58,994 nt of DNA from Candidatus Poseidoniaceae archaeon (GTDB lineage: Archaea; Thermoplasmatota; Poseidoniia; Poseidoniales; Poseidoniaceae): the NCBI GenBank assembly GCA_938075675.1, contig CALJHE010000007.1, forward strand, positions 1-58,994, given 5' to 3'. This document shows, in pieces, positions 2,460 to 51,087 of the stretch. The position numbers and the translations under genes are program-made. Position 1 is the first letter of the stretch. Each line of letters begins with the position of its first letter. The notes beneath the pieces were generated by a model, which was given only the letters and a program-made list of their open reading frames with translations, was not told where the DNA came from and did no database searches.

Positions 2460-2540
2460 GGTTGTGCCAAGCAGGGGTTTGCCATCAATGTGATGCTTGA
2501 TTGACGGCATCAATGAAGTGATGGGCGCGCATCGCAAACC

Positions 2541-3557: not shown

Positions 3558-3581
3558 GGGGCGAGACGCTCTGGAACTACC

Positions 3582-27627: not shown

Positions 27628-27681
27628 GAAAGTCCTAAAAAGAGATTTACTTTCATGTTATGGGACATATTATCGGTTGCT

Positions 27682-29673: not shown

Positions 29674-29730
29674 GTGTTATGTGAGAAGGGTTGTTGCTAT
29701 AATGTTGAGCCGTTGTAGTAGAGTTAAGAT

Positions 29731-30570
29731 CTAATTAGAAGTAAAGATAATTCCATCTTCACCAATGTTTGAGTCATACATTTTCTGGAGTACTGTCTTG
29801 ACTTCAGAAATATTGTGTTCTTGTTTATTATCTGGCAATGTAAACTTGGCAAAATGCCCTGGTAAAACCGAAAGGAATGTATCAACATCTATATCTGCAA
29901 CGTTCTTTAGGTGATGTGGTAGAAACTCTACAACCAATGTTTTACAATTGGATAGAATATCTTTCATACCTTTCATTGCAAAATACTCAGAGCCCTCTAT
30001 GTCCAGTAGAATGAGGTCATAGTCATGTTGAGGTAAATAATCATCAAGTCTGTGAGATTCCAATTCAATAATTTCTGGGTTATCATAAACATAGAGGAAG
30101 TTGCTCTTTTTCGGTTTTCTCTTGCTACCACCTGAGTTTACTGTATTGAGTAGAAACTCTACTTTTTCGTGAGAGTCGTTTGCAAAAATATTGTGTGGTG
30201 TTATGTTTACGATGTTGTTAAGTTGGAGATTTATTTTCAGTAATTCAAAGGTGTTCGGGTTAGCTTCAATCGCTGTTATTTCCTTACAATGTTTTGAAAG
30301 CGGGATTGCTAGAGAGCCAATGTGCGTTCCAACAATCAAAACTTTTGATGTATCGTTGATGAATTTCTTTAGTCGCTCCACTTCATCGATACCAAATCCA
30401 CCCGATCGTAACTTTTGACCTACTTCCAGATCTTCTGGGTCAACTGCAAATAAGCCGTTTTCACTGTTCGTAATGATGGCTTTGATATTCTTACCAAGCT
30501 TTTTCCTAAGTCGCTTTGATTTAATTTTCTTAAAACCAAGATTCAGGCGCCAAGAAAACGCTCGAAGCAT
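29731..30570 (-). CDS. FkbM-family methyltransferase
   Basis: 279 residues. The class I methyltransferase core starts with VLIVGTHIGSLAIPLS (motif I), then ITAIEANPNTFELL with the acidic ribose-binding residue, and ILLDIEGSEYFAMKGM, the FkbM signature 'D.EG.E...l.G'. FkbM enzymes O-methylate sugars or small molecules. The N-terminal 60 residues are very basic. Together with the following glycosyltransferase it suggests a glycan-modification pair. The DNA is AT-rich. The zinc-ribbon gene starts further upstream on the same strand and ends 9 bases before this start. Confidence 0.88.
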   Translation of the reverse strand: MLRAFSWRLNLGFKKIKSKRLRKKLGKNIKAIITNSENGLFAVDPEDLEVGQKLRSGGFGIDEVERLKKFINDTSKVLIVGTHIGSLAIPLSKHCKEITAIEANPNTFELLKINLQLNNIVNITPHNIFANDSHEKVEFLLNTVNSGGSKRKPKKSNFLYVYDNPEIIELESHRLDDYLPQHDYDLILLDIEGSEYFAMKGMKDILSNCKTLVVEFLPHHLKNVADIDVDTFLSVLPGHFAKFTLPDNKQEHNISEVKTVLQKMYDSNIGEDGIIFTSN

Positions 30571-34786: not shown

Positions 34787-35554
34787 ATGGCGGGGACAGA
34801 GCGGCTGTATCTGAACAGTATTGAAGCTGGTTATTCAACAGATTTTGGCGCGACAGTTACGGCAGTAGAAGATGAAAAAATCGCTCTTGACCGAACTCTG
34901 TTTTATCCGTTGGGTGGTGGCCAAAATTGGGATACGGGAATCATCGAGGGGCCGAATGGAACCGCTACAGTACACGAGGTTCGAGGCCGTGACCAGATAG
35001 TACATACCGTCGGGCCGGAACACAACTTTTCAGTTGGAGATAAGGTCCATGGCTCTCTTGACTGGGAAAGAAGGCACGCTCATATGCGCATGCATACTGC
35101 TCAACACCTCATGTCAGGGGTAGTGTATGAATTGTTCAACGGTACGCGAACCGTTGGTAATCAAATTCACAACGACCGTTCGCGTATAGATTTCAATCCA
35201 ATCTCTTTTACTCCAGAAATGCTTGAAGAAATAACTGCACAGGTTAACCTACTTATCGATGCAGATCACCGTGTTACAGATTCGACGATGACACGAGAAC
35301 AGGTTAATTCTCAGATGCCACCCGAACGAACAAACATGGATTTGCTCCCAGCATCGGTTAACGAATTGCGTGTGGTTACGATTGGGCAAGGACTTGACCT
35401 TTGCCCTTGCGCTGGGACGCACGTCCAACGGCTTGGTGAAATTGGGCATATCGACATCACTGGCAAAAAATCTAAAGGAAAAGGAACACAAAGAATCACT
35501 TATGAATTACAAATCCCAAAAATAGTTGCGAGTCCAAACAGAGAACTTCTTTGA
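34787..35554 (+). CDS. alaX: Alanyl-tRNA editing hydrolase AlaX
   Basis: 255 residues. A free-standing editing domain that removes serine or glycine wrongly attached to tRNA-Ala. Zinc is bound by HTAQH (His103, His107) and CAGTH (Cys208, His212). An N-terminal beta-barrel with DRTLFYPLGGGQNWDTG matches the same region of AlaRS and of the medium-length AlaX-M class; there is no long C-terminal extension. It follows the desaturase by 33 bases. Confidence 0.93.
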   Translation: MAGTERLYLNSIEAGYSTDFGATVTAVEDEKIALDRTLFYPLGGGQNWDTGIIEGPNGTATVHEVRGRDQIVHTVGPEHNFSVGDKVHGSLDWERRHAHMRMHTAQHLMSGVVYELFNGTRTVGNQIHNDRSRIDFNPISFTPEMLEEITAQVNLLIDADHRVTDSTMTREQVNSQMPPERTNMDLLPASVNELRVVTIGQGLDLCPCAGTHVQRLGEIGHIDITGKKSKGKGTQRITYELQIPKIVASPNRELL

Positions 35555-35629
35555 GCCGGTGGAGTCAAAACACTGGAAATAAAAATAATTTTTTTATTTT
35601 TTGTAAGGCGATTAAGTAGTATTCATAAA

Positions 35630-36316
35630 TTACTCATTATCGAGCAATTCATCAACCTCAGAAAGCACAGTTTTCCATTCTTTCCTTTGGTTTTGCAACT
35701 CTTCGAAGATTTCTTTTTCAACCATCTCTTTGGATTGAATTGGGGTTTTCTGGGCGTTTTTGGCGGCCTCAAGGCGGTCCGTAAGTGCAACATCTTCACC
35801 AATCCGTTCACTTCGGTCAACTTTAGCAATCTCTCTCGATGGAATTGTTCGTGCCCCATAATCGGAGTGATCCTCTCCACCAAACACTTCGAGAATTTCT
35901 TCCCGTTGCTTCGATGTTGGTGGCCGATCTACCCATTCATTCTGGTTAGCCACATCACGGAGAACATTCACCTTTCGTTGTTTTTTTTGGTTGTCGAACA
36001 CCGATAAAACATCGTCGAGAGTTTGTTGTTGAACGGGCGCTGACAATCCTGCAGCCAAGCGCTGTTGTTCAAGCAGAGTAGGCCCATGAATTTCATCATG
36101 GTCGTGCCGGTGTGGTTCTGCAGCCATCACCAACAACTCTTTTGCAAATTGAGAAAATGGGTCATCATGGGATATTTTGGCTAACTCATCACGTACCCCG
36201 ACATGCCGAGATATACATTTCTTACAACGGCTTGTCGCTGCAACATCTTCAGCATCACATCGAAGGCAACAGGCTTGGAAACCCATTTCTTTCATTGCGC
36301 GACGGGGCATTGACAT
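35630..36316 (-). CDS. Zinc-finger-containing protein of unknown function
   Basis: 228 residues. The N-terminus contains CCLRC and, 10 residues later, CKKC, a probable zinc knuckle. The rest is charged and helical, with a run rich in H/D (HRHDHDE) near residue 70 and a coiled C-terminus (KEIFEELQNQRKEWKT). No membrane segment or catalytic motif is seen. No family recognised. It converges with alaX, with an AT-rich 75-base gap holding T-runs that could end transcription. Confidence 0.7.
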   Translation of the reverse strand: MSMPRRAMKEMGFQACCLRCDAEDVAATSRCKKCISRHVGVRDELAKISHDDPFSQFAKELLVMAAEPHRHDHDEIHGPTLLEQQRLAAGLSAPVQQQTLDDVLSVFDNQKKQRKVNVLRDVANQNEWVDRPPTSKQREEILEVFGGEDHSDYGARTIPSREIAKVDRSERIGEDVALTDRLEAAKNAQKTPIQSKEMVEKEIFEELQNQRKEWKTVLSEVDELLDNE

Positions 36317-36400
36317 GGCAGACTCAATACAACTGACTCACCCATTTGCCATCAAACTTCGGATGCGAGGCTTCAAATCCACCTGACGTGAGAACACAAT

Positions 36401-37336
36401 ATGGCAGGTAAAGATTCACGTGCGGACATTCTTGATGATGACCCCTTTCGGCGTCAAAAGCCCAGAATCCACCGCGTTCATGCGCGTCAAACATCAGACG
36501 GCACCATCCATTTTGACACCGGGTCAAGCGTCAAAATGAACCCTTTATTCTCTCAACTGATGGGCATGTCACAACATCAGCCAGCGGAGCTACATAAGGG
36601 CCGAATATGGCACTTTAGTGATGAAGAAAAGCGCCACCTCGGACTTGCAATGGCTGCGTTTACACTCGCTTTAGGCTTCATGTCAGTTGGAGGTATGTGG
36701 GGCATTAGCAGGCTCGGAATCTCTCCATGGGTTATCCAAATGCTTCTCTCCATGCCCGTTTTCCTCCTCGCAATTGGCCCAGCCTTTCTCTTCCATGAAA
36801 TTGGACATAAAATCATTGCAAAGAAAAACGGGTGCTGGGCCGAATTTCGTGCCGACCCAAAGGGGTTGCGTTTTGGCATATTCCTCTCCTTTTTCATTGG
36901 AGTTTTGTTTATGGCGCCAGGGGCTGTCATGGTTGCAGGACTTGTCACTCGTCGTCAAAATGGTCACATTGCCATTGCAGGCCCACTTGTCAACTTTGGA
37001 CTTTTTTTAATCGGCATCCCGCTGTGGGGGCTCATTCTTGGTCTAACCGGTGCATTCGACGCAGATGTATCCAACACTCAATATTTGGTTGGCGGCCAAT
37101 TGATCTGGCAGAAAATGCTTATCGATGCGGGCCGGTACTGGATTGGTGCGAATCTTGCACTTGGTTTGTTCAACATGATTCCTTGGGGGCCGCTTGATGG
37201 TTTGAAAGTCAAGGATTGGAGTGAAAATGCGTTTTACATTACAATTTCCGTTTTTGCAATACTCAGCTTGTCAGCATGGCCACTCGGTCTTTGGTCACCG
37301 TCTGCACTGCTTGAGACAATCGCATCTCTCTTCTAA
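36401..37336 (+). CDS. Membrane zinc metalloprotease of the M50 (site-2 protease) family
   Basis: 311 residues. After a soluble basic 70-residue N-terminus come about six hydrophobic helices. The zinc site is FHEIGH (His132, Glu133, His136) and the third ligand lies in MIPWGPLDG, the NPDG-type motif. The archaeal rhomboid-like small M50 members have the same layout. These enzymes cut transmembrane segments of anchored regulators or signal peptides. It is divergent from the zinc-finger gene and followed by the giant gene, 83 bases downstream. Confidence 0.92.
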   Translation: MAGKDSRADILDDDPFRRQKPRIHRVHARQTSDGTIHFDTGSSVKMNPLFSQLMGMSQHQPAELHKGRIWHFSDEEKRHLGLAMAAFTLALGFMSVGGMWGISRLGISPWVIQMLLSMPVFLLAIGPAFLFHEIGHKIIAKKNGCWAEFRADPKGLRFGIFLSFFIGVLFMAPGAVMVAGLVTRRQNGHIAIAGPLVNFGLFLIGIPLWGLILGLTGAFDADVSNTQYLVGGQLIWQKMLIDAGRYWIGANLALGLFNMIPWGPLDGLKVKDWSENAFYITISVFAILSLSAWPLGLWSPSALLETIASLF

Positions 37337-37352
37337 TCCAATTTTCCTTCTC

Positions 37353-37364
37353 TTTTTATATAAC
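37353..37364 (+). promoter_or_regulatory. TATA-box-like element upstream of the giant gene
   Basis: TTTTTATATAAC lies 56-67 bases before the ATG at 37420, the clearest TATA-like element in this gap. Transcription would begin near 37384, leaving a leader of about 35 bases that contains a GAGGTG ribosome-binding sequence 8 bases from the ATG. The giant gene therefore seems to have its own promoter and is not read only from the protease gene. Confidence 0.5.
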
Positions 37365-37419
37365 GTCAAAGCGAACACGAATACGGGCAGCAACGGTTAA
37401 ACCAGGCGAGGTGTGATTT

Positions 37420-40400
37420 ATGGATACAGATTTCATCTCTAAAATTTCCATAAACATTGGAAAAATTCCCCCACTCATCCCTCGTGTTGAGAGGTTCTCT
37501 GCAAACGGTTCAGTTATATCTAAGAATTTTACGAAATATATCGGACAACGTGTTCTGAAGGGCTTATCGAATTCAAGACCCGGTAAGGCAGTCAATTTAA
37601 TGCTCTATGGGCACCCGTCGTTAGGTAAAACGACGGAGTTGCGCAACGTAACGAAATTGTTGTCTAACAATGCGAAGTTCAAGCAGAATTTTTTATTGAT
37701 GTATTCTGAGTTCCAACGCGCTGAAACATTCGCCAATCAAACAATGTGGGAAAATATTCGATCGGGTTCAATTCTTCATTCCGACGCTCCTAAACATGAA
37801 ACCTCCTTAGAAGAATTTGCGAAGACTGCTTTGGAAGCGAATAAAACACCGGTAATTTTTCTTGATACACTCGACATTCTTCTTCTTGATGAGGTCGCCG
37901 GAACTTCAAACACAATGGATATGTGGAATGAATTTCTAATGAACACCTCTAGACATGGTGTTTCTGTATTTTGGACCTGTCGTCCTTATGAGTGGAATTA
38001 TTTCAAAAGCAAACTCAACCCCAAGATCCTCAAGAGAACAATGGATATAGAATTACCACCACTTGACAGCAACAAGTGCGTCGAATTCCCTATTATATCG
38101 GGCCCGAATCAACACCGTTGGTCTACATGGTCTCTACAACTCCAATCATACATGCCACTCTTTGCGAACAGATGGACCGTGAAAGGTATTGAAACCACAA
38201 AACTCTCACCTAAATTTTTCTCTCAACTCAGTCAGCACATGGAATGGATATGGGATAGCCCGTTGGGAACGCAACAACTCGAACTCCCATCTACAATGTA
38301 TTACCAATCTCTTTGGTCGAACATCCGTACCGACCTCGAGACAGATAAGAGGTTTGAAAAACAAGAGATAATCGGTTTGCAGAATTATTTCGAGAAACAC
38401 ATAATGGCTATTACGAGCAAATCAAGAAGCCACCGGCTTCGTTTTTCCGAGGAAAATTTCACCCGCGGCTATATCGAATCTCTCGGCAAATCACTCAGGG
38501 GCATGTCCTCACAATTTGTTTTATCAACCACTACACATTTAAAAAAAACAGCCCCACAATTGGCAAAATATCGCAATCAGCTTACGAAAGCAATTGACGA
38601 TTTAGGCGATGATTTGGTTGTGGAAAAAGAGAACCCTTTCGTGAAAGAACTCGAGGAATTTATCCCGCTTAGGGACGCCTTCATCTTGGAACAGGCCGAA
38701 ATCTACCAAAAGTCGGAAAAGTTTCTCAATGTATGCAAACACCATGGTCTGTTAAACGACTTTGAAAAATGGTTTGAATTTTCACACCAATTATTATTCG
38801 AAGAAACTTTGTTTACACAAAACTCTGATGAACTCACATCCTATCAATTCCCATCTGTCGCGCTTCGAAAACTCCCCCCTGGAAGCGGTAAAGATCTCCT
38901 ACGCCGCGAGGCTGAAAAAGCCAGAGTACACTGGACTGGTGCAGCATTGAGTTTTCACCCCGGAATCAGTAACGCTGAAAATGCCGATTGGAATCTTTGG
39001 ATTGAGAAAGCGTACCAACTCGGACTCATACAAATTGATGAAGAGAATGAGATGAATGAAAAGAACACCATTCTGCATGATTATATGAGTTCAAACAGCG
39101 ACACGGCACTGTTTTTACGCGGCGCCCCAGGCACAGGGAAAACTTATTTCTGCCACAATTTCATAATTGAACATCTCAAGACGACGACGACTAAACTTCT
39201 TTGGCGATACGTAACTCTTAACAAACCACTTGTGGACAGTGTTACGGCTCAGTGGTCGGAACGCGAAGCACGCCCACAGAACAGCGGCGTAATAGGTATG
39301 CAAAGACATGGTTCTGGCGCCCGTAGCGTCGGTGACATAATCAAAGCAGTCTTATGCGAATCTGAAGACAGTACTTTACATTCAATAACGCTTCTTGACT
39401 TTCCCAAATTTAAACAAACACTTGACTATTGGTTTGAAACGAAAGGCCAAGGCACAATTCCTCCCCCTTCGTATACAGACGCTTGGTCTGACTTAACCTC
39501 ACTCTTTCACCATGTAGGGGGCGCCCGGAATATGGAAATTTTAGATGAGTTTGATTATGAAGAAAGCTCACAGCGTTCAGTAACAGGGACGAAAACACAA
39601 CGAGAACTGTTCGCTAAATTCTGTTTTCGTTCGTTTGAAGAAAATTGGAAAATTTACTCAAACGCTTCGTATCTAGCCCGTAAACAATTGATGAGAGCTC
39701 GCGGGAGATCCAGTCAAAAATATGACATGTTGATGCTTGATGAAGTACAGGACATAACCCCCTCTACAATGGCCCTCCTCCTCCTCCTTCTCAACCCAGG
39801 CTTTACGACGAAATCTATCTTAATAGCTGGCGACGATTTACAAACCGTAAACAGGAGTGGATTTGCATGGAAAAGTTTCATTGCGGATACAATCAGCATT
39901 TTACGACGTGTCGGGGCCAGCGCACACCCAGAACTCGATCGCCTTACCACATTCGGCGCCCCCTATAACATAGAAACGGAATTAAAAACCCTAAAACAGG
40001 TTTATAGAAACGCTCCTAAAATAGCAACATTCAACGATACACTTCGCAGCACTTTTGCCGATCAGTACCCGACTGAAACCATGCCAAACTACCCTAGAGA
40101 GTTTTTAAAAATAAGCGATATGGCTAAAGAGAAAAATTCTGATTGTCAAATTTCAATAATTTCTGCCCCCTCCGATCACCATGTTGAAAAAGTGATAAAT
40201 TCACTCAACACTCATTCACGTGAAATCTCTGTTTCTTCTAAAACATCAATCATTACACCCTATCAGTCTACTCTCGGTACGAGTTTAGATTCGGTTGGCA
40301 ATTTTACCACATACAACGGCGAGACCGTAAAAGGCTTAGAGTTCTCTGGGGTAGTTGTATTCAATCCATATGAATTAATGTATGACGAGGCCGAAGGTAA

Positions 40401-43400
40401 CCTAAACAAAGGATTGCAAAAATCAAACATCGAAGACCGTATTCGAAAATGGATGGAGAGGGACTCAGATGCTTCTATCCATTCCATTCAAGGTTTTTTA
40501 CGATTGTATCGTAACATCATGACACGAATGAACGTTTTATTTTCACGACCCGAGTATCGCTTACTTATCGTTACCAGAGAACCCTTTCCACGAACACCGA
40601 TTAACTCCGATGCGATCAGAATTAACCGTTTCTTTGAAGCCCCACTCTCAATAATATTCAGCCTCCCAACATTGTCTGAGGACACCATATCTTCTCTTGG
40701 AATTAACATGTTGGATATGGACGAAGGGCACGAAGATCTTGATAACTTCATCCTTGATGCTTTACGGCGAGAAAGTAATATTGAGGGTTACAGCATCAAC
40801 GATTACTTGAGATGGGTAATGGATGAATCTCAAATAAGTAATTTCTCTAATGAAAAACAATCTTGGGAGAATTTCCTAAACGTCAAACCATCTGAGCTTT
40901 TGAAACCACAAACCGCCCCAATTCCGGTATTTTCAACACTTTTGTTGTCGGGGACAAGCTACGCCCCAACCGGTTCTTTCATCAGCAAAGAAGATATCAA
41001 ACTTCCAATAGTGCTTACAGCTTTTCGAAACAAATACAACAATACTCATGGGTGGGGGGTCGAATCCGAACAATCACAATCAGGGGTAACTGAAATATTC
41101 TTAACTTCATTGTCCAAAGGCATCTATCAAGGTGAATTGTCGATTGAGACCTATTACTCTCTCGGAGATTTACTGGAGCCATTCATTGAGTATGTATTAC
41201 GAGATGCGGCTTTATGCGCAGAACATTATCCATACTTACTCCAACTTGTAGGTAAAGAGATTTTAGGCATTCATTTCGACGAATATTCTCTAAATGATGA
41301 AGAAGTGGTTGCTATTGATAAGAATTTATCATTCGATAAAAATTTCAAACCCATATTCACGAAACCAACATTAGAAGATTCCATAGGGAGAATGAATGGC
41401 AAGAACATCACTCTCGATTCCAAGGCACACATTCTAGATAAGATTCTCATACACATCAGTGAAACCATAGATCATTCTGTTTTCGACCACATCTTAGACC
41501 CAGCAACAGGCTTCAATTTAGCCCCCGAATCCCGTAATGAAATCGATATGATTCTCAACGCACCAAATGAATCTCATTTCTGGGGAGAAATGGCGCGTGA
41601 ATATCCTACCTGGGAGTCGGTTTCAGATTCACCGAGTTCAATTGGTGAATTACTCGGCTCGTCTATAAAACGTCAAGAATTGCGACACACTGTCCAAATG
41701 CTGTGGAATCTTTCGTCAGATAATAAAACGCTTACGGACTGGCCAGCTGAGACAAATCTTCTATCCTTGAAAAAATACTTCTTCGAAGAGAATGATACCT
41801 CTATCCCGAACAAATTCCCATCCCATCTTCAATCTTCAACACGAGAATTCTTTGAAGATGTTCTCGATACCCAATTCATAGAATTTGGTGGGGAAGACGA
41901 GGAATTCCCAATGCGACTTCTTTTTAGAAATGTTAAATTTTGGTCTGCAATTATTACAGACACACTTCTCCGTTTGAATACAGCGCCTCCGAAGCACCTT
42001 GACGTTGAACAAAAGGCGTTGTGGGCAAATTGGTATTTTAATTTAGATGGCCAACGCCCCCCTTCCAACTCAGCATTTTTTGACTATCTTTCGTTAATTG
42101 GACAGTCTTTTAATTCAACCATATCTTTCAAAAAGTCTCGCAATTTAGCATTAGACCTTATGCTTTTCATGAATTTCCACGATGAGAGTATTGTAGAGAA
42201 CTACCCGTTAATGGATGACCTTCTCGATGTATTCGAACACGGCGACATTCTTAACCGCAGTCCACGCGCTAAAATGAAGACGAATTCATTGATGAAGGCA
42301 TTGATTGCAGGGCCACGATTGACAGTCGCAGCCACCGAAGGTCACGTTAGACGCGGTGAGGCCAAGAAAATCGGCGAACGCGTTCGGACTTCATTACGAG
42401 ATAGCAAATATCGTGTCGATGACCGGCACCTCGAAAAACGACTTTTTTTCCTGTTCCAACTTGTACGTAATTACACGGAACCGAATGAGAATTTGAAAAC
42501 GATCGAACCAACGGAAAGAGGCGCGTACAATCAAGTTTATCAAAGTGCAATTGATTTTACATCTAAGATTTTTACGGTTTTGAGCGGCAAAGATGACGAT
42601 GAAATACAGAGGAAATCAAATTATGCAAAACACTTCAACAATTTGGCAATGAATCTTGACTCCCCCAACAATGTACTTTCAACGCGAAAGCCCTTTGTTG
42701 GAGAGAATAACAAAGAGGCATGGTCTCAGTGGCTAGCCATTTTGCTATACGGCGCTCTTGAGTACCAATATTCAATTGGCGGTAAGTCAACTGCACTTGA
42801 GATTGGTGCGGGTAAAAGACTCATCGCAAAATCAGGAGGCCGAATAATTACCAATACTCTACACGATTATTTTGCTGAGAATTTAGCTAACTGTTCCGCT
42901 GAAAAATTCTTCGAATCCTATTTTTCCATGGTTAACTGTGGCTTCTATATACCTCCGGCGAGCATCTCTTTCCCCGAAGGAGATGTTAGATTACGCGGAG
43001 TCTTGACAGGTATTGAATCCCACTTCAATATCAGTAAGAGAACCGGATTTTTCATTGGCGCCCTTACCGAACTTATCGACAGAGTACTTCCAGATGGTGA
43101 GCAGTTTAAGAATGCGAGAGAAACGAACCCCATGCGTTACCACCCGGCGTATGATTCTGCACAGAGGACTCTTGGTGTCTCTGCCGAAGTTATACGGGCA
43201 ATCCGAAAGAGCGAAGAAACATCACGCGATCTCGCTGTTCAATTTGGTCTAAAATTAGATGAAGTATTAGAAATCCGCTCATCAATAAATTACGTCCCAT
43301 TTTATATCGAATCGAAACGAGTAACAAAGCAAGAGGACGGAACAGAAATTGTACGCCAACTGACCGATCAGAAGTTTAGCATTCAACAACCACGAATGTC

Positions 43401-44139
43401 AGCATTTGATATTGCCTACCCTCCGATAAACAGAGGCGGCCTTATACGAGGCAATGATCCAAGGAAAGAATGGATCGTAAAGAACCTTGATGGACTATCT
43501 AAAGCATTTGGAGGAGACTCGAGCAGTCATAGAAAGCGTATTATTCATCACATTTGCTATGCTATGGCGAACTCCTTTGACAAACCCTCATCTCAAAATC
43601 GGCCGGCGGATATGAAAGTTTCAATCGGCCGTTATTTAGCGATTGAGATTTTGCGTTCGGACGACATTGAAAGAACAACACATATCGAAGACTACCAGTT
43701 AGATTGGCGGGTGTTGTATGAGATGATGAGAATGAATGTAGAAACGAACAAGACGTTTGACATGTTTGTCAATTTCGAAGTTGAAGAGATTATTAAATCA
43801 GAAACGACAGAACTCACATTCAATTCTTTACTTGGCGATAATGAAGTACTGGCCGAATTTTTTGAATTAATGGTTAACCCAATCCAGTACCTCTTTACTA
43901 AAAACCAAGTCTTCAATATTCGCTCTGACTTTACAACATTGCCTCGCACCATTGACAGAACACAACTTTTCTTTTTGAGGCAAAAAAGTAATTCTATGAC
44001 TCCGGAACAGAGAATTTATGCTAATAATATTGCTTGGGGCTTCATACGTTACACAATGTACAGAGCCGGGTTTGATTGCGCCGAGGATATCGATGAATCT
44101 GTGCCGATTGACCAGAGAATATTCACCCGGCGTGATTAG
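37420..44139 (+). CDS. Giant two-ATPase protein: N-terminal P-loop NTPase plus UvrD-type SF1 helicase plus about 1180 unassigned residues
   Basis: 2239 residues in one uninterrupted frame. Part 1: Walker A GHPSLGKTT (64-72) with a Walker B-like IFLDTLDILLLDEVAG (146-161) and a sensor-like FWTCRPYEW, resembling STAND/archaeal-ATPase folds. Part 2 (about 560-1055) is a full superfamily 1A helicase: motif I GAPGTGKT (568-575), II DEVQD (774-778), III GDDLQ (804-808), IV QVYRNAP (Arg863), V GETVKGLEF (967-975), VI MTRMNVLFSRPEYRLL (1034-1049). All key residues are intact. Part 3 (1060-2239) has no motif I recognise, no membrane span and no obvious nuclease site. It is AT-richer than most neighbours, has its own TATA-like promoter, and its TAG overlaps the end of the converging M28 gene by 4 bases. 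Function unknown; defence or nucleic-acid surveillance is inference. Confidence 0.9.
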   Translation: MDTDFISKISINIGKIPPLIPRVERFSANGSVISKNFTKYIGQRVLKGLSNSRPGKAVNLMLYGHPSLGKTTELRNVTKLLSNNAKFKQNFLLMYSEFQRAETFANQTMWENIRSGSILHSDAPKHETSLEEFAKTALEANKTPVIFLDTLDILLLDEVAGTSNTMDMWNEFLMNTSRHGVSVFWTCRPYEWNYFKSKLNPKILKRTMDIELPPLDSNKCVEFPIISGPNQHRWSTWSLQLQSYMPLFANRWTVKGIETTKLSPKFFSQLSQHMEWIWDSPLGTQQLELPSTMYYQSLWSNIRTDLETDKRFEKQEIIGLQNYFEKHIMAITSKSRSHRLRFSEENFTRGYIESLGKSLRGMSSQFVLSTTTHLKKTAPQLAKYRNQLTKAIDDLGDDLVVEKENPFVKELEEFIPLRDAFILEQAEIYQKSEKFLNVCKHHGLLNDFEKWFEFSHQLLFEETLFTQNSDELTSYQFPSVALRKLPPGSGKDLLRREAEKARVHWTGAALSFHPGISNAENADWNLWIEKAYQLGLIQIDEENEMNEKNTILHDYMSSNSDTALFLRGAPGTGKTYFCHNFIIEHLKTTTTKLLWRYVTLNKPLVDSVTAQWSEREARPQNSGVIGMQRHGSGARSVGDIIKAVLCESEDSTLHSITLLDFPKFKQTLDYWFETKGQGTIPPPSYTDAWSDLTSLFHHVGGARNMEILDEFDYEESSQRSVTGTKTQRELFAKFCFRSFEENWKIYSNASYLARKQLMRARGRSSQKYDMLMLDEVQDITPSTMALLLLLLNPGFTTKSILIAGDDLQTVNRSGFAWKSFIADTISILRRVGASAHPELDRLTTFGAPYNIETELKTLKQVYRNAPKIATFNDTLRSTFADQYPTETMPNYPREFLKISDMAKEKNSDCQISIISAPSDHHVEKVINSLNTHSREISVSSKTSIITPYQSTLGTSLDSVGNFTTYNGETVKGLEFSGVVVFNPYELMYDEAEGNLNKGLQKSNIEDRIRKWMERDSDASIHSIQGFLRLYRNIMTRMNVLFSRPEYRLLIVTREPFPRTPINSDAIRINRFFEAPLSIIFSLPTLSEDTISSLGINMLDMDEGHEDLDNFILDALRRESNIEGYSINDYLRWVMDESQISNFSNEKQSWENFLNVKPSELLKPQTAPIPVFSTLLLSGTSYAPTGSFISKEDIKLPIVLTAFRNKYNNTHGWGVESEQSQSGVTEIFLTSLSKGIYQGELSIETYYSLGDLLEPFIEYVLRDAALCAEHYPYLLQLVGKEILGIHFDEYSLNDEEVVAIDKNLSFDKNFKPIFTKPTLEDSIGRMNGKNITLDSKAHILDKILIHISETIDHSVFDHILDPATGFNLAPESRNEIDMILNAPNESHFWGEMAREYPTWESVSDSPSSIGELLGSSIKRQELRHTVQMLWNLSSDNKTLTDWPAETNLLSLKKYFFEENDTSIPNKFPSHLQSSTREFFEDVLDTQFIEFGGEDEEFPMRLLFRNVKFWSAIITDTLLRLNTAPPKHLDVEQKALWANWYFNLDGQRPPSNSAFFDYLSLIGQSFNSTISFKKSRNLALDLMLFMNFHDESIVENYPLMDDLLDVFEHGDILNRSPRAKMKTNSLMKALIAGPRLTVAATEGHVRRGEAKKIGERVRTSLRDSKYRVDDRHLEKRLFFLFQLVRNYTEPNENLKTIEPTERGAYNQVYQSAIDFTSKIFTVLSGKDDDEIQRKSNYAKHFNNLAMNLDSPNNVLSTRKPFVGENNKEAWSQWLAILLYGALEYQYSIGGKSTALEIGAGKRLIAKSGGRIITNTLHDYFAENLANCSAEKFFESYFSMVNCGFYIPPASISFPEGDVRLRGVLTGIESHFNISKRTGFFIGALTELIDRVLPDGEQFKNARETNPMRYHPAYDSAQRTLGVSAEVIRAIRKSEETSRDLAVQFGLKLDEVLEIRSSINYVPFYIESKRVTKQEDGTEIVRQLTDQKFSIQQPRMSAFDIAYPPINRGGLIRGNDPRKEWIVKNLDGLSKAFGGDSSSHRKRIIHHICYAMANSFDKPSSQNRPADMKVSIGRYLAIEILRSDDIERTTHIEDYQLDWRVLYEMMRMNVETNKTFDMFVNFEVEEIIKSETTELTFNSLLGDNEVLAEFFELMVNPIQYLFTKNQVFNIRSDFTTLPRTIDRTQLFFLRQKSNSMTPEQRIYANNIAWGFIRYTMYRAGFDCAEDIDESVPIDQRIFTRRD

Positions 44140-45902
44140 AGATAGGCGTTTCGAACCGGTGTTTCATCAAGGTGGAAGAACGAATAAGTTGCCCACCAAG
44201 TGATGGTGTCAAGCGCATCAACAAGATTGCTGGTGCCCGATTGTTCTTCCCCGTAATCCTTCCCCGTTGTGTCCATCCAATCTACCATTTCATCCACCGT
44301 GTCGCATGTCTGATGATAACACCAATACCCATCAACAAGGCCTCCAAAGCCCATGGTTACCGTACCAAGGTTGTCTTGGAATGTTGCATGATCAGAACGA
44401 GCAGTCGTATCTTCATAGATGATGATTTCAGGACGATCCTTTGCCATCCAATCATCCACTTTCCACGTCTCAGCTGAATGCCCCTCTCCAAGCAAAGGTG
44501 CCATTTGCTCTTCAACACCAATCGCATCTGAACCAATCCACATCGCAAGGCCGACCATGCCAGGCTGATTCATGACATCGTGATCGAGGCTTGGGCCAAT
44601 GTAAACTCGCATTGGCCAAACTTCCTCATCCTTCGGATATCCATCTGGGTCGATTTCGGGTTGCGGGTCACATCCTGCGGCTCCGCCGCCGTGACCATTG
44701 CCGCATGGCGCGCCGCCACCACCGGGCCAGTTCACACCAGCCATGTCGAGGTTGACATAATTGGTGACTTCGACGTTAGGGTTCTCTTCTTTTACCCAGT
44801 AATCGGTCCAGAAGTCACTCCCTCTCTTCCCACCTTCTTCACCAGACCATAGGCAAAACACCATTGTATTACGCGTGTCAAAATTTGCCATTGCTTCTGC
44901 GACGGTGAGTACCATCGATGTCCCTGCGGTGTTGTCATAGGCTCCAACACGGGTTCCGTATGTACGTCCAAAAATGTGCGGGTCAAGCATTCCTGCGTTG
45001 GCCGGTGGGGCGATATCAAAGTGAGCGCCAAAAACCATCCACTTGTCAGGATTAACCTCGCCAAATCGGTAACCACATATGTTGTATGCTTCGGGGTTTT
45101 GTGCTCCAGTCATGAGCGAATCATAGGTAAATCGTTGCACGATGACTTCTAATCCGAAACTTTCGAGGTTTCCAATCAGGTATTGCGCAGCATCTTCGTA
45201 GGCCGCATTACCTTGACCAGCCCAACGATCTAGGTAGCCAACAGCGCCGTCTGCAGCATCAGTGGGGTCCGCAGTTTCATCAGTAATATGGCTCATGTAA
45301 TTGAATACATTTAGTCCGTCCACCAAACCGGTTGAGTGGCGACCCCCATCTGCTTCTGAATAAGCGGCAGCCATTGGACGGTCCACACTTATACGAACCG
45401 CAGTTACCTGACCACCACTGTTGTTTGATGCCACAACTGTGTCTAAAGTTCCGTTGACGCCCGCCACTCTCATGACCCCCAGTGCATCTCCAGCCTCAAA
45501 CCCAGACCGGCCGTACCATGTTTTCCACGACTCATCAATCGATCGAATCGGCCAATCTTCTCGACCGTATTCACCAAGCAAAATCACAACAGTATCTGTT
45601 CTTGGGGGCGCAAGAACGTTGAGCAAGACAGAATCCCCTGCACGCATGTCGAGCACAGTTGAATTTTGAACAAAACCAGTTTCTTGGTTCTTGATAAGGT
45701 ATGGAATGAATGCCGACATGTCTTGTTCAACCGATAGAGTCATTCCCTGGAAAATACCACCAATCATCGTGGCTGGAGTTATTGTTACATCATCGGGCTT
45801 CACGAGCCCATCGTTGTCATTTTCACCAAAACATCCCGACAGAGGTGCGAGACACATGAGCAGAACGAGAAACAATGCTTGCACTCCTTTTGACCCGGCC
45901 AT
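44136..45902 (-). CDS. Secreted lipoprotein M28 metallopeptidase (copy 1)
   Basis: 588 residues. The lipoprotein signal is ALFLVLLMCLAPLSGCFG with the lipobox cysteine at residue 24, followed by GENDND. A 200-residue beta-rich lead domain precedes the M28 core. Zinc ligands are seen at His294/Asp296 (GAHFDI), Asp323 (GAYDNTAG), Glu355/Glu356 (SGEEGG, general base and ligand), Asp386 (NLDMAG) and a C-terminal His in WCYHQTCD. It should release N-terminal amino acids from peptides outside the cell. It is a close paralogue of the gene at 49492-51087, sharing the 'GCFGENDND' start and the same domain order; this copy has an extra glycine-rich insertion after NLDMAG. Confidence 0.92.
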   Translation of the reverse strand: MAGSKGVQALFLVLLMCLAPLSGCFGENDNDGLVKPDDVTITPATMIGGIFQGMTLSVEQDMSAFIPYLIKNQETGFVQNSTVLDMRAGDSVLLNVLAPPRTDTVVILLGEYGREDWPIRSIDESWKTWYGRSGFEAGDALGVMRVAGVNGTLDTVVASNNSGGQVTAVRISVDRPMAAAYSEADGGRHSTGLVDGLNVFNYMSHITDETADPTDAADGAVGYLDRWAGQGNAAYEDAAQYLIGNLESFGLEVIVQRFTYDSLMTGAQNPEAYNICGYRFGEVNPDKWMVFGAHFDIAPPANAGMLDPHIFGRTYGTRVGAYDNTAGTSMVLTVAEAMANFDTRNTMVFCLWSGEEGGKRGSDFWTDYWVKEENPNVEVTNYVNLDMAGVNWPGGGGAPCGNGHGGGAAGCDPQPEIDPDGYPKDEEVWPMRVYIGPSLDHDVMNQPGMVGLAMWIGSDAIGVEEQMAPLLGEGHSAETWKVDDWMAKDRPEIIIYEDTTARSDHATFQDNLGTVTMGFGGLVDGYWCYHQTCDTVDEMVDWMDTTGKDYGEEQSGTSNLVDALDTITWWATYSFFHLDETPVRNAYL

Positions 45903-46120
45903 GGTGGTGGCTTAGGGCGTACCCTTCTCAAACCTACGCTTGAATGTGGGGTGGAAGAACATAAACTGTCAACCACATTCTATTCAACAGAATTGCAAAT
46001 TCTACCTACTCTTTACCGGAATCCGAAATTTTTTACCGGAAACTGGAAAATATGTCCCTACGAGCAAAGAAATACGGCAATTGTTTGATATAGGTAGTAT
46101 AACAATTTAAACATGATAAT
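45903..46120. other. Non-coding gap upstream of the M28 peptidase gene
   Basis: About 220 AT-rich bases that must carry the promoter of the M28 gene. The direct near-repeat ATTTTTTACCGGAA / TTTTTTACCGGAAACTGG (around 46020-46042) is visible but its role is unclear. No reading frame with a protein-like pattern is seen here. Confidence 0.45.
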
Positions 46121-46276
46121 ATGGAACGAGATGAGAACCATTCATTCAATGTGAAGTTCATCACTACGACGAAAAAACCCCAGATGAGCAACAAAGCTGT
46201 ACGAACATCGTATTTATGGGCCAGCATTGTCATCGTTGATGATGAAGATTGCAATTGTCCGGTAATCGAAGGATAA
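46121..46276 (+). CDS. Possible 51-residue soluble protein
   Basis: An ATG frame of 51 codons that ends exactly one base before the stop of the converging gene. It is mildly basic in the first half (TTTKKPQMSNKAVR) and ends in an acidic, cysteine-bearing tail (VDDEDCNCPVIEG). TTTGATATAGG, 30-40 bases upstream, could be a TATA element. A 73-codon antisense frame overlaps it. Support is only positional and compositional. Confidence 0.22.
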   Translation: MERDENHSFNVKFITTTKKPQMSNKAVRTSYLWASIVIVDDEDCNCPVIEG

Positions 46277-46942
46277 TCATTCTTCTTCGTTTGAATCAGA
46301 ACTTCGAATCAGCCGTTCTTTACGAATGCTGAGGGTAAGAATCACCGTCCCAAACGCTGCAAAAACCATAACACCGATTAACGTATTACGAGAATCCCAT
46401 TCGGAATCGGATTGTGTTTCAGTGGAAGCATCGTCAGCACAATTTGTTCCAAAACAATCGCCGATAGAAGGCTGCCCAGGTTCGGCGTGAATGTCTGGAT
46501 GGACGGTAATGTTGTATTGCCAAACATCAACAACAGAATCATTTATTTTTCGTTCAATTTGGTAATGATATGTGCCTTGGGATGTTGAATTGAAGTTGCG
46601 TTCATAGGATACGGCGCACCCATCATCTGCTAAACTTCCGTTGTCATCGAGTTCACACGTTCTTGTCAACCAAGTGGAGACATTGTCGCCTTGATCGGAA
46701 AAATTCCCGTTTTGATTGTTGTCAATTGAGACCCGCATCGAGGAGTTTTCAGTGTTGTCTCGCATCCGGAAAACTATATTGTTCCCTTCTACGAATGCCG
46801 AGTCAGTGACATTTCCCGGCCGGGCTTCGTCTTCGACCAGTATAACATTCAACGTTTCTTGTTCGTGGGCTGTAGCGCTTGGCACGAGGATTAAAACACA
46901 CAAAAGCACAACGAGTGAGTTGAGCCCCTTCCTCTGCGACAT
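46277..46942 (-). CDS. Secreted, C-terminally membrane-anchored protein of unknown function
   Basis: 221 residues. A signal peptide (LVVLLCVLILVPSATA) is followed by an Asn/Asp-rich beta domain of about 140 residues with two cysteine pairs, many N-x-S/T sites, and a C-terminal transmembrane helix (TLIGVMVFAAFGTVILTLSI) before a short charged tail. The mature protein begins HEQETLNV; a histidine at the mature N-terminus is sometimes used for metal binding. No family recognised. It diverges from the LVIVD propeller gene, 57 bases away. Confidence 0.8.
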   Translation of the reverse strand: MSQRKGLNSLVVLLCVLILVPSATAHEQETLNVILVEDEARPGNVTDSAFVEGNNIVFRMRDNTENSSMRVSIDNNQNGNFSDQGDNVSTWLTRTCELDDNGSLADDGCAVSYERNFNSTSQGTYHYQIERKINDSVVDVWQYNITVHPDIHAEPGQPSIGDCFGTNCADDASTETQSDSEWDSRNTLIGVMVFAAFGTVILTLSIRKERLIRSSDSNEEE

Positions 46943-46999
46943 ATTCCCCCCTTCACAGCATTACATAAAGACAAAACGGAGAAGCGTATCGCCACAACC

Positions 47000-48805
47000 A
47001 TGGCAGAGGGCATCGGCATCGGCGCGAAAGAAGTCGGTCTCGGTATTTTCATCGTTCTGCTTCTTGGCTCAGCATCGTTGTTGACATTCGGCTCATCCGT
47101 TTCTTCTGATGCCCCAGAAATTCAGTTTTCACAATCGGATGACCCACTCTTCCAAGGCGAAGGTCACGACCATTCCAACGCCTCACAACATATTGCCGGC
47201 ACTGATAACATGGCATTGATGGACTACAATTCACTTACGACGACCGGAAATGCGGAAATTCAAGTCGCAACAACTCCAGATGGAGAAACGTATGCTTACC
47301 TTGCAGGCTGGAACGATATGCATATTGTCGATGTTACCGACCCCAACAACACGACGGTGACGGGGGTGTACAACGACCCGAATACCCAAGTGCTCGATGT
47401 AAAGTACGTCGAATACAATGGAAGAGAGTATATTTTGCAACAAAATCAACTCATAGATCCAGGGAATGCAGACCCAAATGTAGGCCAATGGAGCGACCCC
47501 GCACAAGTTTCAGTGACCCTCATCGATGTAACGGACAAAACAAATCCGACATGGATTGATTCATGGTACGATGTTGACCATCCAAGTGGCCCACACAACA
47601 TGTACACACAGATGATCGACGGGGAATGGTATGTGTTTATCGCAAACCCAGATTATGAGCAATGCAACGATGCAATCGGCGAAGCCTGTGGGGGCGTCAC
47701 CATTGCCCACTTGAACCTCGACGGCTCAGCATCGCGCAACCTACCGGGTGTTCCAGCTTCAGGGCTTGGCCATACAATCATCAAAGTTGGTGAATATGAA
47801 GTTGCTTGGGAAGCAACCAACGGTGGTTGGATTTACATTCATGACATGACAGTACAACTCTGGCCCGGTGAAGACCCAAACGACCCACGCTACGGCCACA
47901 CCTTCATCTACGGAAGTTACTGGGAAGCAGGCCTACGGATTGCTGATGTCACCAATGTCCCTCACCCGACAAATTCCCCCGAAGAATATACGCTGCACGC
48001 TACGCTTTGCAAAACAGGCCAAGGCAACCCTCTTCAATGCCGCTGGCGAGCTGAAGAAGTTGGCCAATGGATGGAATTCCTCGACTTAGATGACGATGGA
48101 AAGCCTGACAGCGGCACCAACGGAAACGAAAACGGCGGACGTGTTTCGTACATCCACTACGCTGAACCGTTCCCAAACATGGTTGATCTTTCCCATGTTG
48201 GCTATTCGGATGAGCCAGTACATCTTGTGACGGCAGCAGTCGAAGTTCTTTCGACAAACGTCGGAACTGGCATCATCTACCTGATTGACACCACGGACTA
48301 CACGATGGTCGACGGGCAACTCAAATTCCAACCAAAACTGATTCGAGATTGGGAAATTCCGTGGGCGAGCGATCACTGCTATGGTGCAGATTGTGAAGCT
48401 TATCCAAACGATGACGAATGGCTTTTATTCTCTCCGCATAACCTTGACAGCGCCTATTTTGAGACCGATGAAACGACCGATCAGAGCCATGGTGGCGGCT
48501 GGGATGGAAGACTCTACATTTCTCATTACCATGCTGGCCTGTGGGTTATTGACGTCGAAACCCTGGTATCGCCTACAAACCCCGACGATCGCATTGCAAC
48601 TCACTTCGAAGCAACCGTGGGGTGGTATCTCCCACACGGCGAGGACGGGACACCACTCGACTCAAGTTTCTACGATTTCGGTTGGGTTCCGTTTTTGTGG
48701 GCGGTTGAGCATCATAATGGTTTGACGTACGCATCATGTATTTCTACAGGACTTTATATTGTCCAACTTGAGACCGACATTGCATATCTTGGCCAACTCG
48801 TTTGA
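47000..48805 (+). CDS. Membrane-anchored LVIVD-repeat beta-propeller protein
   Basis: 601 residues. One N-terminal membrane helix (VGLGIFIVLLLGSASLLTF, about residues 13-31) places the rest outside the cell. The outside part has blades with the LVIVD pattern: YLAGWNDMHIVDVTDP, VSVTLIDVTDKTNP, GLRIADVTNVP, GIIYLIDTTDY and LYISHYHAGLWVIDVETL. The histidines in DVDHPSGPHNMY and FSPHNLDS, together with a His-rich GEGHDHSNASQH near the N-terminus, might bind metal. The family is seen in secreted proteins of unknown role. It overlaps nothing; the SCO1-like gene follows in 10 bases, so the two form an operon. Confidence 0.82.
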   Translation: MAEGIGIGAKEVGLGIFIVLLLGSASLLTFGSSVSSDAPEIQFSQSDDPLFQGEGHDHSNASQHIAGTDNMALMDYNSLTTTGNAEIQVATTPDGETYAYLAGWNDMHIVDVTDPNNTTVTGVYNDPNTQVLDVKYVEYNGREYILQQNQLIDPGNADPNVGQWSDPAQVSVTLIDVTDKTNPTWIDSWYDVDHPSGPHNMYTQMIDGEWYVFIANPDYEQCNDAIGEACGGVTIAHLNLDGSASRNLPGVPASGLGHTIIKVGEYEVAWEATNGGWIYIHDMTVQLWPGEDPNDPRYGHTFIYGSYWEAGLRIADVTNVPHPTNSPEEYTLHATLCKTGQGNPLQCRWRAEEVGQWMEFLDLDDDGKPDSGTNGNENGGRVSYIHYAEPFPNMVDLSHVGYSDEPVHLVTAAVEVLSTNVGTGIIYLIDTTDYTMVDGQLKFQPKLIRDWEIPWASDHCYGADCEAYPNDDEWLLFSPHNLDSAYFETDETTDQSHGGGWDGRLYISHYHAGLWVIDVETLVSPTNPDDRIATHFEATVGWYLPHGEDGTPLDSSFYDFGWVPFLWAVEHHNGLTYASCISTGLYIVQLETDIAYLGQLV

Positions 48806-49491: not shown

Positions 49492-51087
49492 CTACAATTC
49501 GTTTGGAACTGGCGTTTGGTCCATGTGTAAAAATGCGTATACAGCCCACCATGTTACAATGTCCCAAGAGTGGACAAGGTTTGCTTCACCGGTCGCATTG
49601 TCGGTTGCCATGTACTCCTCCATCTCAGGGAGTTTATCACAAATCTTGTGGTAGCAAGGATATCCATCGACAACCCCATTCCATCCAAGAGTAGCAACAC
49701 CGATGTCTTGGAACGGCTGATGATCACTTCGAGCAGTAGGGCTTTCATAAATTGCTACAACATCTTGGTAATTGTTCTGCCAAAGAGGTTCTTCACCTCC
49801 TGCAGCCCATTCAGCACGCCCCCGCTCCATTTGATAAGAGAGGTCAAAAGCATCAGCTCCTATCCACTCTGCGAGGTGATACATACCTGGTTGATCAATA
49901 ACATCTCCAGTTCCGTCAGGGCCGAGGTAGACTGAAAGTGCAAAATCTCCCGGGTAATTTATTCCGGCCATATCCAAGTTGAGATAATTGCTGACAGTGA
50001 CTCCATCAGGTAGGTCGCCTGCAAAAGCGCTTGAACCCCACAACCCCTCTTCCTCTGAGGACCATAAACAAAATACCATTGTCCTACGTGCATCGAAATC
50101 AGCCAAAACACTCGCGGTCGTGAGAACCATTGAGGTTCCTGCAGAGTTGTCGTATGCTCCGGTTCGAGTCCCGTAACCAGTCTGCTCGAGTCCTGGGACA
50201 AATGAGGTAGGTGTAGCGATTGGGGCGATATCGAAGTGTGCTCCGAAGACCAACCATTCGTCAGGATAAACGGTTCCGGTTTTGTAGCCGCAGATGTTTA
50301 CTGCCCAAAGCGTACCTGACTGGAATCTGTGGACTTCAACATCAAGACCGTATCCAATCATTACGCCTTCAAAGTAAGTTATAGCATCTTCATATGCTGG
50401 ATTACCATTTCCAATCCATCGGTCAAGATAGCCAACAGCACCATCTGCAAGATCGAGTGGGTCTGGGGTTTCATCAGTGATGAAGTCAACCCATTCATAG
50501 ACATCTCTTCCATTCAGCCAGCCGCCGCTTGCAGATACACCGTTTTCCTCGGTTAGGTCTGCTCTTTGCGGGCGTTCTGTCGACAGTTGCACGACAGAAA
50601 CATCCCCGCCTGAAGAAGGGCCAGGGACAATCCATGGCCACATGCCACCCGCATCCTCGTTTGGAACAACTGAGACACTTGACCCTCTTGAACCGTCAAG
50701 AATCCAATCCATCCAAGATTCATCTGCAGCTCTGATTGGCCAGTCGGAACGCGTGTATTCCCCAACGAGAAGCACAATGTTCGGGTTTCTTGGCGGGAAC
50801 AATACGTTTACGCTTTGAGATTGACCTGCTTGAATATCGAACACCGTGCCGTTTTGAGCCCTCATTGAACCCATGTCTTGAATAAAATATGGAATGAAGA
50901 CAGAGAGGTCGACTTCGGCTCTAAGCGTGATTGATTGCCATGCACCTCCCAGCAATGAACTGGCTTCCTCTACGACGAGGTCGGAAGCCTGAGGGGGGTC
51001 GTTATCGTTCTCTCCAAAGCAACCAGCAAATGTGGCTGAGAACATCAACAAAATCAGTAACATTGCTCGCGTATAACTGCTGCGCAT
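49492..51087 (-). CDS. Secreted lipoprotein M28 metallopeptidase (copy 2)
   Basis: 531 residues. Signal MLLILLMFSATFAGCFG with lipobox Cys23, followed by GENDND as in copy 1. The core has GAHFDI (His284, Asp286), GAYDNSAG, SSEEEGLWGSS, NLDMAG and CYHKICD for the remaining zinc ligand. The lead domain is recognisably homologous to copy 1 (VDLSVFIPYFI against QDMSAFIPYLI). It lacks the glycine-rich loop of copy 1. The gene converges on the SCO1 gene with a single base between stops. Exported aminopeptidase of amino acid scavenging type. Confidence 0.92.
   Translation of the reverse strand: MRSSYTRAMLLILLMFSATFAGCFGENDNDPPQASDLVVEEASSLLGGAWQSITLRAEVDLSVFIPYFIQDMGSMRAQNGTVFDIQAGQSQSVNVLFPPRNPNIVLLVGEYTRSDWPIRAADESWMDWILDGSRGSSVSVVPNEDAGGMWPWIVPGPSSGGDVSVVQLSTERPQRADLTEENGVSASGGWLNGRDVYEWVDFITDETPDPLDLADGAVGYLDRWIGNGNPAYEDAITYFEGVMIGYGLDVEVHRFQSGTLWAVNICGYKTGTVYPDEWLVFGAHFDIAPIATPTSFVPGLEQTGYGTRTGAYDNSAGTSMVLTTASVLADFDARRTMVFCLWSSEEEGLWGSSAFAGDLPDGVTVSNYLNLDMAGINYPGDFALSVYLGPDGTGDVIDQPGMYHLAEWIGADAFDLSYQMERGRAEWAAGGEEPLWQNNYQDVVAIYESPTARSDHQPFQDIGVATLGWNGVVDGYPCYHKICDKLPEMEEYMATDNATGEANLVHSWDIVTWWAVYAFLHMDQTPVPNEL

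What the first reader, a model, noticed from the sequence alone, without database searches (positions are those of the whole stretch)
37420..44139. Orphan giant protein joining a second P-loop NTPase to a complete SF1 helicase and 1180 unassigned residues
One 2239-codon frame carries an N-terminal Walker A (64-72) and Walker B (146-161), a full UvrD-like helicase with all six motifs (568-1049) and a long C-terminal region with no motif I can name. The NTPase plus helicase pairing recalls known single-gene or two-gene anti-phage systems (for example Nhi, Gabija GajB or AAA-helicase fusions), yet the layout matches none I know. It stands alone, with its own TATA-like promoter, between ordinary chromosomal genes, and is AT-richer than most of them. 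I infer a mobile or fast-evolving defence or surveillance function; the sequence shows only the domains.
Basis: partly seen in the sequence, partly recalled or inferred. Interest (0 to 1): 0.82.

Follow-up and report, generated by a model that had tools for sequence, protein, structure and literature searches.

The report
Swappable giant switch-helicase gene in archaea
Some marine archaea carry, at one fixed spot in the chromosome, a single huge gene that fuses an immune-type ATP switch to a helicase; some relatives have it, others lack it, and the copy studied here seems to have been swapped in from another strain, as antiviral genes often are, but its function is untested.

Summary
Window 37420-44139 is one 2239-codon gene: an N-terminal P-loop NTPase of the STAND/ORC-Cdc6 (NACHT-like) kind, a complete UvrD-like SF1 helicase and ~1190 residues matching no described domain. 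Catalytic residues are conserved in relatives down to 19% identity (one exception in a partial row). It is an optional insert between convergent M50 and M28 peptidase genes: of 62 same-genus genomes 37 sites were resolved; 8 carry it, 25 have the peptidases adjacent, 4 carry other cargo. The window's allele looks swapped: flanking genes are close to those of G066 and G005, but the giant is synonymously saturated and 60% and 52% identical, its tree conflicts with the flanks, and identity breaks 90-120 nt before the stop. The measurable pairs show purifying selection. Distant relatives elsewhere follow an overlapping upstream gene; one (G115) also follows a DEAD helicase and a GmrSD_N protein. 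Best reading: an NTP-gated helicase immune factor (0.5); no nuclease or toxin domain was found, and other cargo at the site is not defence-like. It has no full-length match to Gabija, Avs, MADS or Mokosh models; the BREX BrxD-BrxHI pair is closest in principle. New variant of a known kind.

The parts
37420..44139 (+). giant STAND-SF1 gene, 2239 aa, including stop
   Evidence: orthologues
37353..37376 (+). TATA-like element with conserved downstream sequence, probably the gene's own promoter (inferred)
   Evidence: single match in window; aligned in 6 members, window included
37540..38049 (+). residues 41-210: STAND/ORC-Cdc6-type P-loop NTPase (Walker A 64-72, Walker B D149/D152, TxRP arginine R188)
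38050..39108 (+). residues 211-563: mostly helical linker, fold not assigned; residues 301-450 are the least conserved stretch
39109..40575 (+). residues 564-1052: SF1 (UvrD-like) helicase, motifs I-VI
40576..44136 (+). residues 1053-2239: C-terminal region found only in this genus, predicted mainly helical (model of low confidence)
44017..44139 (+). last ~120 nt of the gene: identity to G005 and G066 falls from ~0.9 to ~0.5 going inward; inferred 3' breakpoint of the allele swap
36401..37336 (+). left flank of the insertion site: M50 peptidase gene
44136..45902 (-). right flank of the insertion site: convergent M28 peptidase gene, stop codon overlapping that of the giant gene

Best explanation
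A single-protein, NTP-gated helicase that most likely acts against viruses or other invading nucleic acid. Shown: an intact STAND/ORC-Cdc6-type NTPase fused to an intact SF1 helicase, both catalytic centres conserved; the gene is an optional cassette at a fixed chromosomal site; its alleles differ deeply between genomes whose flanks are close; the measurable pairs show purifying selection. Inferred: the window's allele came in by homologous recombination; the C-terminal ~1190 residues, predicted helical, serve as scaffold or sensor for a foreign ligand; ligand binding switches the STAND NTPase, which loads or activates the fused SF1 helicase on the target nucleic acid, so that viral replication or transcription intermediates are unwound or stripped. 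No nuclease or toxin domain was found, so the helicase itself is proposed as the effector unless one is hidden in the C-terminal region.
For: Domains and catalytic conservation; the residue 1-1060 model (pLDDT 71, pTM 0.50) lists NLRP/NOD2 NACHT proteins, ORC, UvrD/Upf1-type helicases and, at rank 49, Avs4 (low TM-scores). Same site in all 8 carriers, 25 empty and 4 with other cargo of 37 resolved among 62 same-genus genomes. Allele difference: G000-G005 pS 0.14-0.28 in 8 downstream genes but 0.76 over the giant's 519 shared codons; G000-G066 pS 0.29-0.61 in 9 flanking genes but 0.80 in the giant; tree conflict; 3' breakpoint. Close pairs dN/dS 0.06-0.19, for example G066-G005 0.080/0.73. A distant relative (G115) lies in one same-strand cluster with a DEAD helicase matching PsyrT/DpdF models and a GmrSD_N protein. 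PMC12839542 (passages seen) proposes that BrxD, an ORC-Cdc6 ATPase, loads or activates the BrxHI helicase: the same logic in two genes.
Against: No known effector domain was found. Of the window's other genes only the two flanking ones were scanned (Pfam), so nearby defence genes are neither shown nor excluded. Other cargo at the same site is an MFS transporter, a DUF1565 protein and ~150-aa orphans: a generally flexible site rather than a defence island. The tie to defence genes rests on one distant relative. The N-terminal part alone passes no Pfam cut-off, and AAA_16 is matched as often as NACHT. The C-terminal model is poor (pLDDT 46.9), so 'sensor' is a guess. PADLOC matches are weak and local. 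The 5' breakpoint is not established: a control pair shows a similar fall in identity there. The relatives with named records are metagenome-assembled; which allele goes with which flank in one bin could be an assembly switch between strains.
Confidence: 0.5

Rival explanations
1. An accessory genome-maintenance machine: the ORC/Cdc6-like NTPase loads the SF1 helicase at stalled forks or recombination intermediates; the gene is dispensable and so comes and goes.
For: Best NCBIfam match is orc1/cdc6 (E 1.4e-7 over two stretches, far below its cut-off); Foldseek lists ORC and UvrD/Upf1; helicase motifs intact.
Against: NACHT is matched by 7 of 10 family members and R188 (TxRP, signature recalled) is invariant; deep allelic replacement at a fixed spot seems unusual for repair genes (inference); the G115 cluster has genes that match restriction and defence models.
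Confidence: 0.25
2. Remnant or cargo of an integrated mobile element (virus or plasmid replication protein).
For: Optional presence, different cargo at the same site.
Against: The insert is the gene plus about 80 nt; no other gene in it, no tRNA at the site, and the two ends share no exact word over 7 nt, within chance. No tblastn match of the window protein in phages or plasmids; viral contigs gave none, but were screened with only four short peptide patterns. The 3' breakpoint fits homologous recombination.
Confidence: 0.1
3. NLR-like abortive-infection receptor: the STAND domain oligomerises, the helicase domain is part of the sensor, and a toxic (for example RNase) activity lies undetected in the C-terminal half.
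For: STAND-plus-helical-region layout; Foldseek lists Avs4 and NLRPs; an invariant R2038/R2040...H2044 cluster in a predicted helix loosely recalls an Rx4-6H RNase motif (pattern recalled, not tested).
Against: No convincing domain hit in 7 members, low-confidence model, and such short motifs arise by chance.
Confidence: 0.15

Closest known systems
BREX type 2 BrxD-BrxHI pair (PMC12839542, passages seen)
   Same: ORC-Cdc6/STAND-clade ATPase working with a helicase; the paper proposes that BrxD loads or activates BrxHI
   Different: two genes inside a BREX locus (recalled: BrxHI is an SF2 enzyme); here one polypeptide with an SF1 helicase, and the insert holds no other gene
Avs/AVAST STAND NTPases
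   Same: STAND-type NTPase in a very large defence protein with a long C-terminal part (layout recalled)
   Different: no N-terminal effector; a complete SF1 helicase follows the NTPase; the Avs1b model scores 11.6 bits against a 1500-bit cut-off
Gabija GajB
   Same: UvrD-like SF1 helicase; weak match E 7e-4 over 722-796
   Different: no GajA gene beside it (flanks are peptidases), an extra STAND domain and ~1190 C-terminal residues
Relatives in G115, G008, G030, G184 (more remote: G043, G172)
   Same: N-terminal P-loop NTPase followed by SF1 helicase in proteins of 1981-2112 aa where unbroken (for G172 the NTPase rests on its alignment to G043)
   Different: no detectable similarity of the C-terminal halves (G043 compared whole); in five of the six an overlapping upstream frame of 512-635 aa, absent in the window's clade; G008 and G030 are of the same genus, the others of other genera

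Membership tests
STAND/ORC-Cdc6-type P-loop NTPases | intact Walker A and Walker B | tested here: met
   K70, T71 10 of 10; D149 11 of 11; D152 10 of 11
STAND/ORC-Cdc6-type P-loop NTPases | STAND-type arginine after the sensor-1 strand (TxRP; signature recalled) | tested here: met
   R188 10 of 10
STAND/ORC-Cdc6-type P-loop NTPases | curated NACHT/STAND model above its cut-off | tested here: not met
   NACHT 26.0 bits against 26.7 for the whole protein, 22.5 bits for residues 1-560; AAA_22, AAA, AAA_19 and NPHP3_N (the last on the helicase P-loop) pass for the whole protein only
SF1 UvrD-like helicase | motifs I-VI with catalytic residues | tested here: met
   9 of 9 rows at every residue checked; UvrD structures among Foldseek matches
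Gabija | GajB-GajA gene pair | tested here: not met
   the two neighbours are M50 and M28 peptidases
AVAST (Avs) | full-length Avs model match | tested here: not met
   Avs1b 15.3 bits, best stretch 35 residues; 11.6 bits against 1500
MADS (mad8) | full-length mad8 match within a MADS operon | tested here: not met
   partial or P-loop-sized matches in this and two related proteins
Mokosh (MkoA) | full-length MkoA match | tested here: not met
   26 residues at E 0.0014
BREX | PglZ, BrxC and other core genes at the locus | tested here: inconclusive
   no BREX model matched the protein and the insert holds only this gene, but the other window genes were not scanned
anti-phage defence system | protection against a virus | not testable with these tools
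   needs an experiment

The most novel reading that the evidence does not exclude
A one-protein innate immune receptor in uncultured marine archaea in which an NLR-like STAND switch directly drives its own SF1 helicase as the effector, kept as deeply diverged alleles that are exchanged as whole cassettes at one chromosomal site, so that the locus works as an allelic immunity locus of the population.
Probability: 0.25. Interest if true: 0.82.

Novelty: new variant of a known kind. Interest (0 to 1): 0.6.

Why it matters
Two intact motors in one chain make the proposed 'ATPase gates helicase' logic of multi-gene defence systems testable in one protein. It also gives marine Poseidoniales a concrete candidate immune locus, with natural allele differences and empty sites for comparison. 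Of 13 papers in the held library that contain both 'Poseidoniales' and 'defense' (titles and abstract openings seen), none is by its title about antiviral genes of this group.

Tried and rejected
Housekeeping helicase at a conserved locus: rejected, the gene is missing at 29 of 37 resolved sites (25 empty, 4 other cargo). Virus or plasmid origin: no hits (relatives G115 and G008 against plasmids). Fast protein evolution as the cause of 60% identity: rejected, synonymous sites are saturated too while flanks are not. Known defence family by HMM: none full-length. RNA element: none at the gathering threshold in 35000-47000. Repeats linking the two ends of the insert: one search searched each end apart, so I compared the ends directly: longest shared word 7 nt, shuffled mean 7.75. 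C-terminal fold: no match with E under 0.001; importin/HEAT-like hits on a model of pLDDT 46.9 are not used as proof. Similarity of the C-terminal half to relatives' C-terminal halves or upstream partners: none detected. HTH-like hits in the C-terminal half (HeH/LEM, Xre-like, HTH_23) came each in 1 of 7 members at E 0.004-0.26 and were not counted.

Limits and results against: genome contigs was scanned once, with two C-terminal peptide patterns, so it says nothing about the NTPase-helicase half in other groups; phylum searches drew 389 genomes; five of the 15 matching genomes lie outside the order (E 6e-7 to 7e-9), on short P-loop or helicase-motif stretches only. The metagenome collection could not be scanned. 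In one search pairs with under 150 aligned residues were skipped, and pairs that set N-terminal against C-terminal fragments (21-28% identity) are meaningless and not used. In one search gene 47000 alone did not reject the rival grouping (p 0.12); the strong flank test (p 2e-9) used M28 plus gene 47000 without G079, whose M28 is itself foreign; in the giant tree (7 genomes, 512 of 678 columns) G000 is a long branch with a printed warning, the grouping without it has support 92/94 and the rejections are modest (p 0.02 and 0.04). In one search the last 120 nt are also somewhat better conserved between G000 and G014 (0.67-0.80), so part of the 3' rise may be constraint. One search read the wrong strand and was not used. 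Of the paper searches, searches listed no paper holding 'Poseidoniales', so they say nothing about that group.
Full report
What is there. Window 37420-44139 (+) is one open frame of 2239 codons with no full-length match in Pfam, PADLOC, NCBIfam, PHROGs or the PDB sequences. Residues 41-210 form a P-loop NTPase. For the whole protein Pfam gives AAA_22 (E 3e-9, two stretches summed) and a NACHT match just under its cut-off; NCBIfam gives orc1/cdc6 (E 1.4e-7, two stretches, far below its cut-off). Residues 1-560 alone pass no cut-off (NACHT E 1.1e-4 is best); among 10 family members scanned so, 7 match NACHT and 7 AAA_16 at E 0.1 or better, NACHT with the best single E (3.6e-7). Residues 564-1052 are a complete UvrD-like SF1 helicase. 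In a 12-row alignment reaching relatives of 19-30% identity, every catalytic residue checked is kept in all rows that cover it, except D152 in one partial row. AlphaFold2 of residues 1-1060 (12 sequences, pLDDT 71, pTM 0.50) lists NLRP/NOD2 proteins, ORC, UvrD/Upf1-type helicases and also dynein and ClpC; Avs4 is at rank 49; TM-scores on the query are 0.12-0.28. Residues 1051-2239 gave a poor model (7 sequences, pLDDT 46.9), mostly helical, whose best matches are large helical-repeat proteins such as FANCD2 and CRM1, none with E under 0.001: a hint only.

Where it lives. Left is an M50 peptidase gene, right a convergent M28 peptidase gene; the giant's stop codon overlaps that of the M28 gene. 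Searches of 62 same-genus genomes with each flank plus fetched stretches resolve 37 of 62 sites. Eight carry the gene, all at this site: G000, G014, G066 and G065 between both flanks, and G005, G079, G074 and G080 cut by contig ends but next to one or both flanks. In 25 the peptidases are 5-108 bp apart. Four carry other cargo: a 972-aa DUF1565 protein (G006), an MFS transporter (G059) and orphans of 150 and 146 aa (G025, G033). The other 25 lack a flank or are broken by contig ends and are not counted. No other gene lies in the insert, no tRNA at the site, and the insert ends share no word over 7 nt. A promoter-like element is recognisable in the 6 members with the upstream region, window included.

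Allele exchange. G005 is the nearest carrier: 8 downstream genes differ from the window's at pS 0.14-0.28, yet the 519 shared codons of the giant differ at pS 0.76 with 52% amino-acid identity. G066: nine flanking genes pS 0.29-0.61, giant pS 0.80 and 60% identity over 2232 codons. By contrast G066 and G005 giants differ at pS 0.47, like their flanks (0.31-0.53). The trees conflict: M28 plus gene 47000 put G000 with G005 and G066 (rival grouping rejected, AU p 2e-9; G079 left out), gene 47000 alone does not decide (p 0.12), and the giant puts G066, G005, G079 and G014 together without G000 (support 92/94; G000+G005+G066 rejected at p 0.02; G000 is a long branch). The last 90 nt of the giant are 93% identical to G005, then identity falls to about 0.5; the control pair G066-G014 shows no such step (0.73 in all three end blocks). 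At the 5' side identity falls from 0.9 at the promoter to about 0.6 inside the gene, but G066-G014 falls too, so no 5' breakpoint is claimed. This is best explained by homologous replacement of the cassette. Close pairs give dN/dS 0.11, 0.09, 0.13 (G066, G005, G079; C-terminal ~500 codons) and 0.19 and 0.06 (G065-G080, C- and N-terminal pieces; the G065 gene is frame-broken): purifying selection. Residues 301-450 and the C-terminal half vary most.

Relatives. Across 318 genomes of the order, 18 match the full profile, several on helicase motifs only; the NTPase-plus-linker profile finds 10, which misses carriers cut before that part (G005, G079). The C-terminal half was found only in this genus. 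More distant proteins with both motors occur in G008 and G030 (same genus, elsewhere in the chromosome; the G030 copy is frame-broken and its M50-M28 site is empty), G115 and G184 (same family), and more remotely in G043 and G172. In G115, G008, G184, G043 and G172 the giant overlaps an upstream frame of 512-635 aa by 4-25 nt; G030's partner region is broken up. These partners are not recognisably related except G008-G030 and weakly G008-G184. In G115 a DEAD helicase (PsyrT and DpdF models, E down to 1e-37) and a GmrSD_N protein (Pfam E 1.4e-24) precede them on the same strand: the one direct tie to defence-type genes. No homologue was found among phage and plasmid records or, by four short patterns, viral contigs.

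How it may work (inferred). The two motors in one chain suggest that the STAND/ORC-Cdc6 NTPase gates or loads the helicase, as PMC12839542 proposes for BrxD and BrxHI (passages). PMC7159879 (passages) notes a superfamily-I helicase module among effectors of the conflict systems it describes. PMC10853773 (passages) places STAND and ORC/Cdc6 NTPases in one family and reports Orc/CDC6 copies fused to STAND NTPases in its neighbourhoods. PMC12799240 (passages) mentions an SF1 helicase only as a phage trigger. In the listings I saw no title or abstract opening on a STAND-SF1 fusion of this layout; this is not proof that none exists.

Against. Other cargo at this spot is not defence-like; the link to defence genes rests on G115 alone; the other genes of the window were not scanned for defence models; relatives with named records are metagenome-assembled, so which allele goes with which flank in one bin could be an assembly switch between co-occurring strains, although several alleles at the site are seen in independent bins.

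Noticed in passing
window 44136-45902 and 49492-51087: Two peptidase-like paralogues (about 43% identical; the first matches M28) lie near each other on the minus strand and recur in relatives.
   Followed up: no
L092 (G079) 1481-4247: In G079 the M28 gene and the next gene are only 68-70% identical to those of G066 (M28 also to G000), while the following gene is 96-97% identical: a second recombination tract beside the giant gene.
   Followed up: partly
window 27571-30570: Three neighbouring frames have lower GC (36-39%) than the giant gene (41.6%); possibly another flexible region.
   Followed up: no
L091, L089, L088, L086, L012: A separate group of 1476-1617-aa proteins with SF1 helicase motifs in other chromosomal contexts; related to each other, only locally similar to the window protein.
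   Followed up: partly
L085 5557-18332: Four-gene same-strand cluster: DEAD helicase (DpdF/PsyrT models), GmrSD_N protein, 564-aa orphan, 2057-aa STAND-SF1 protein; a candidate defence operon.
   Followed up: partly
L044 10876-10938: The G065 copy of the giant gene is split by a frame break near ambiguous bases; an assembly fault or a pseudogene.
   Followed up: no
L054, L056: In G010 an M50 gene lies next to a 1018-aa TIG/BNR protein and a 154-aa gene, not next to M28; G069 has one M50 gene beside M28 and a second beside a short frame and a similar 151-aa gene.
   Followed up: no
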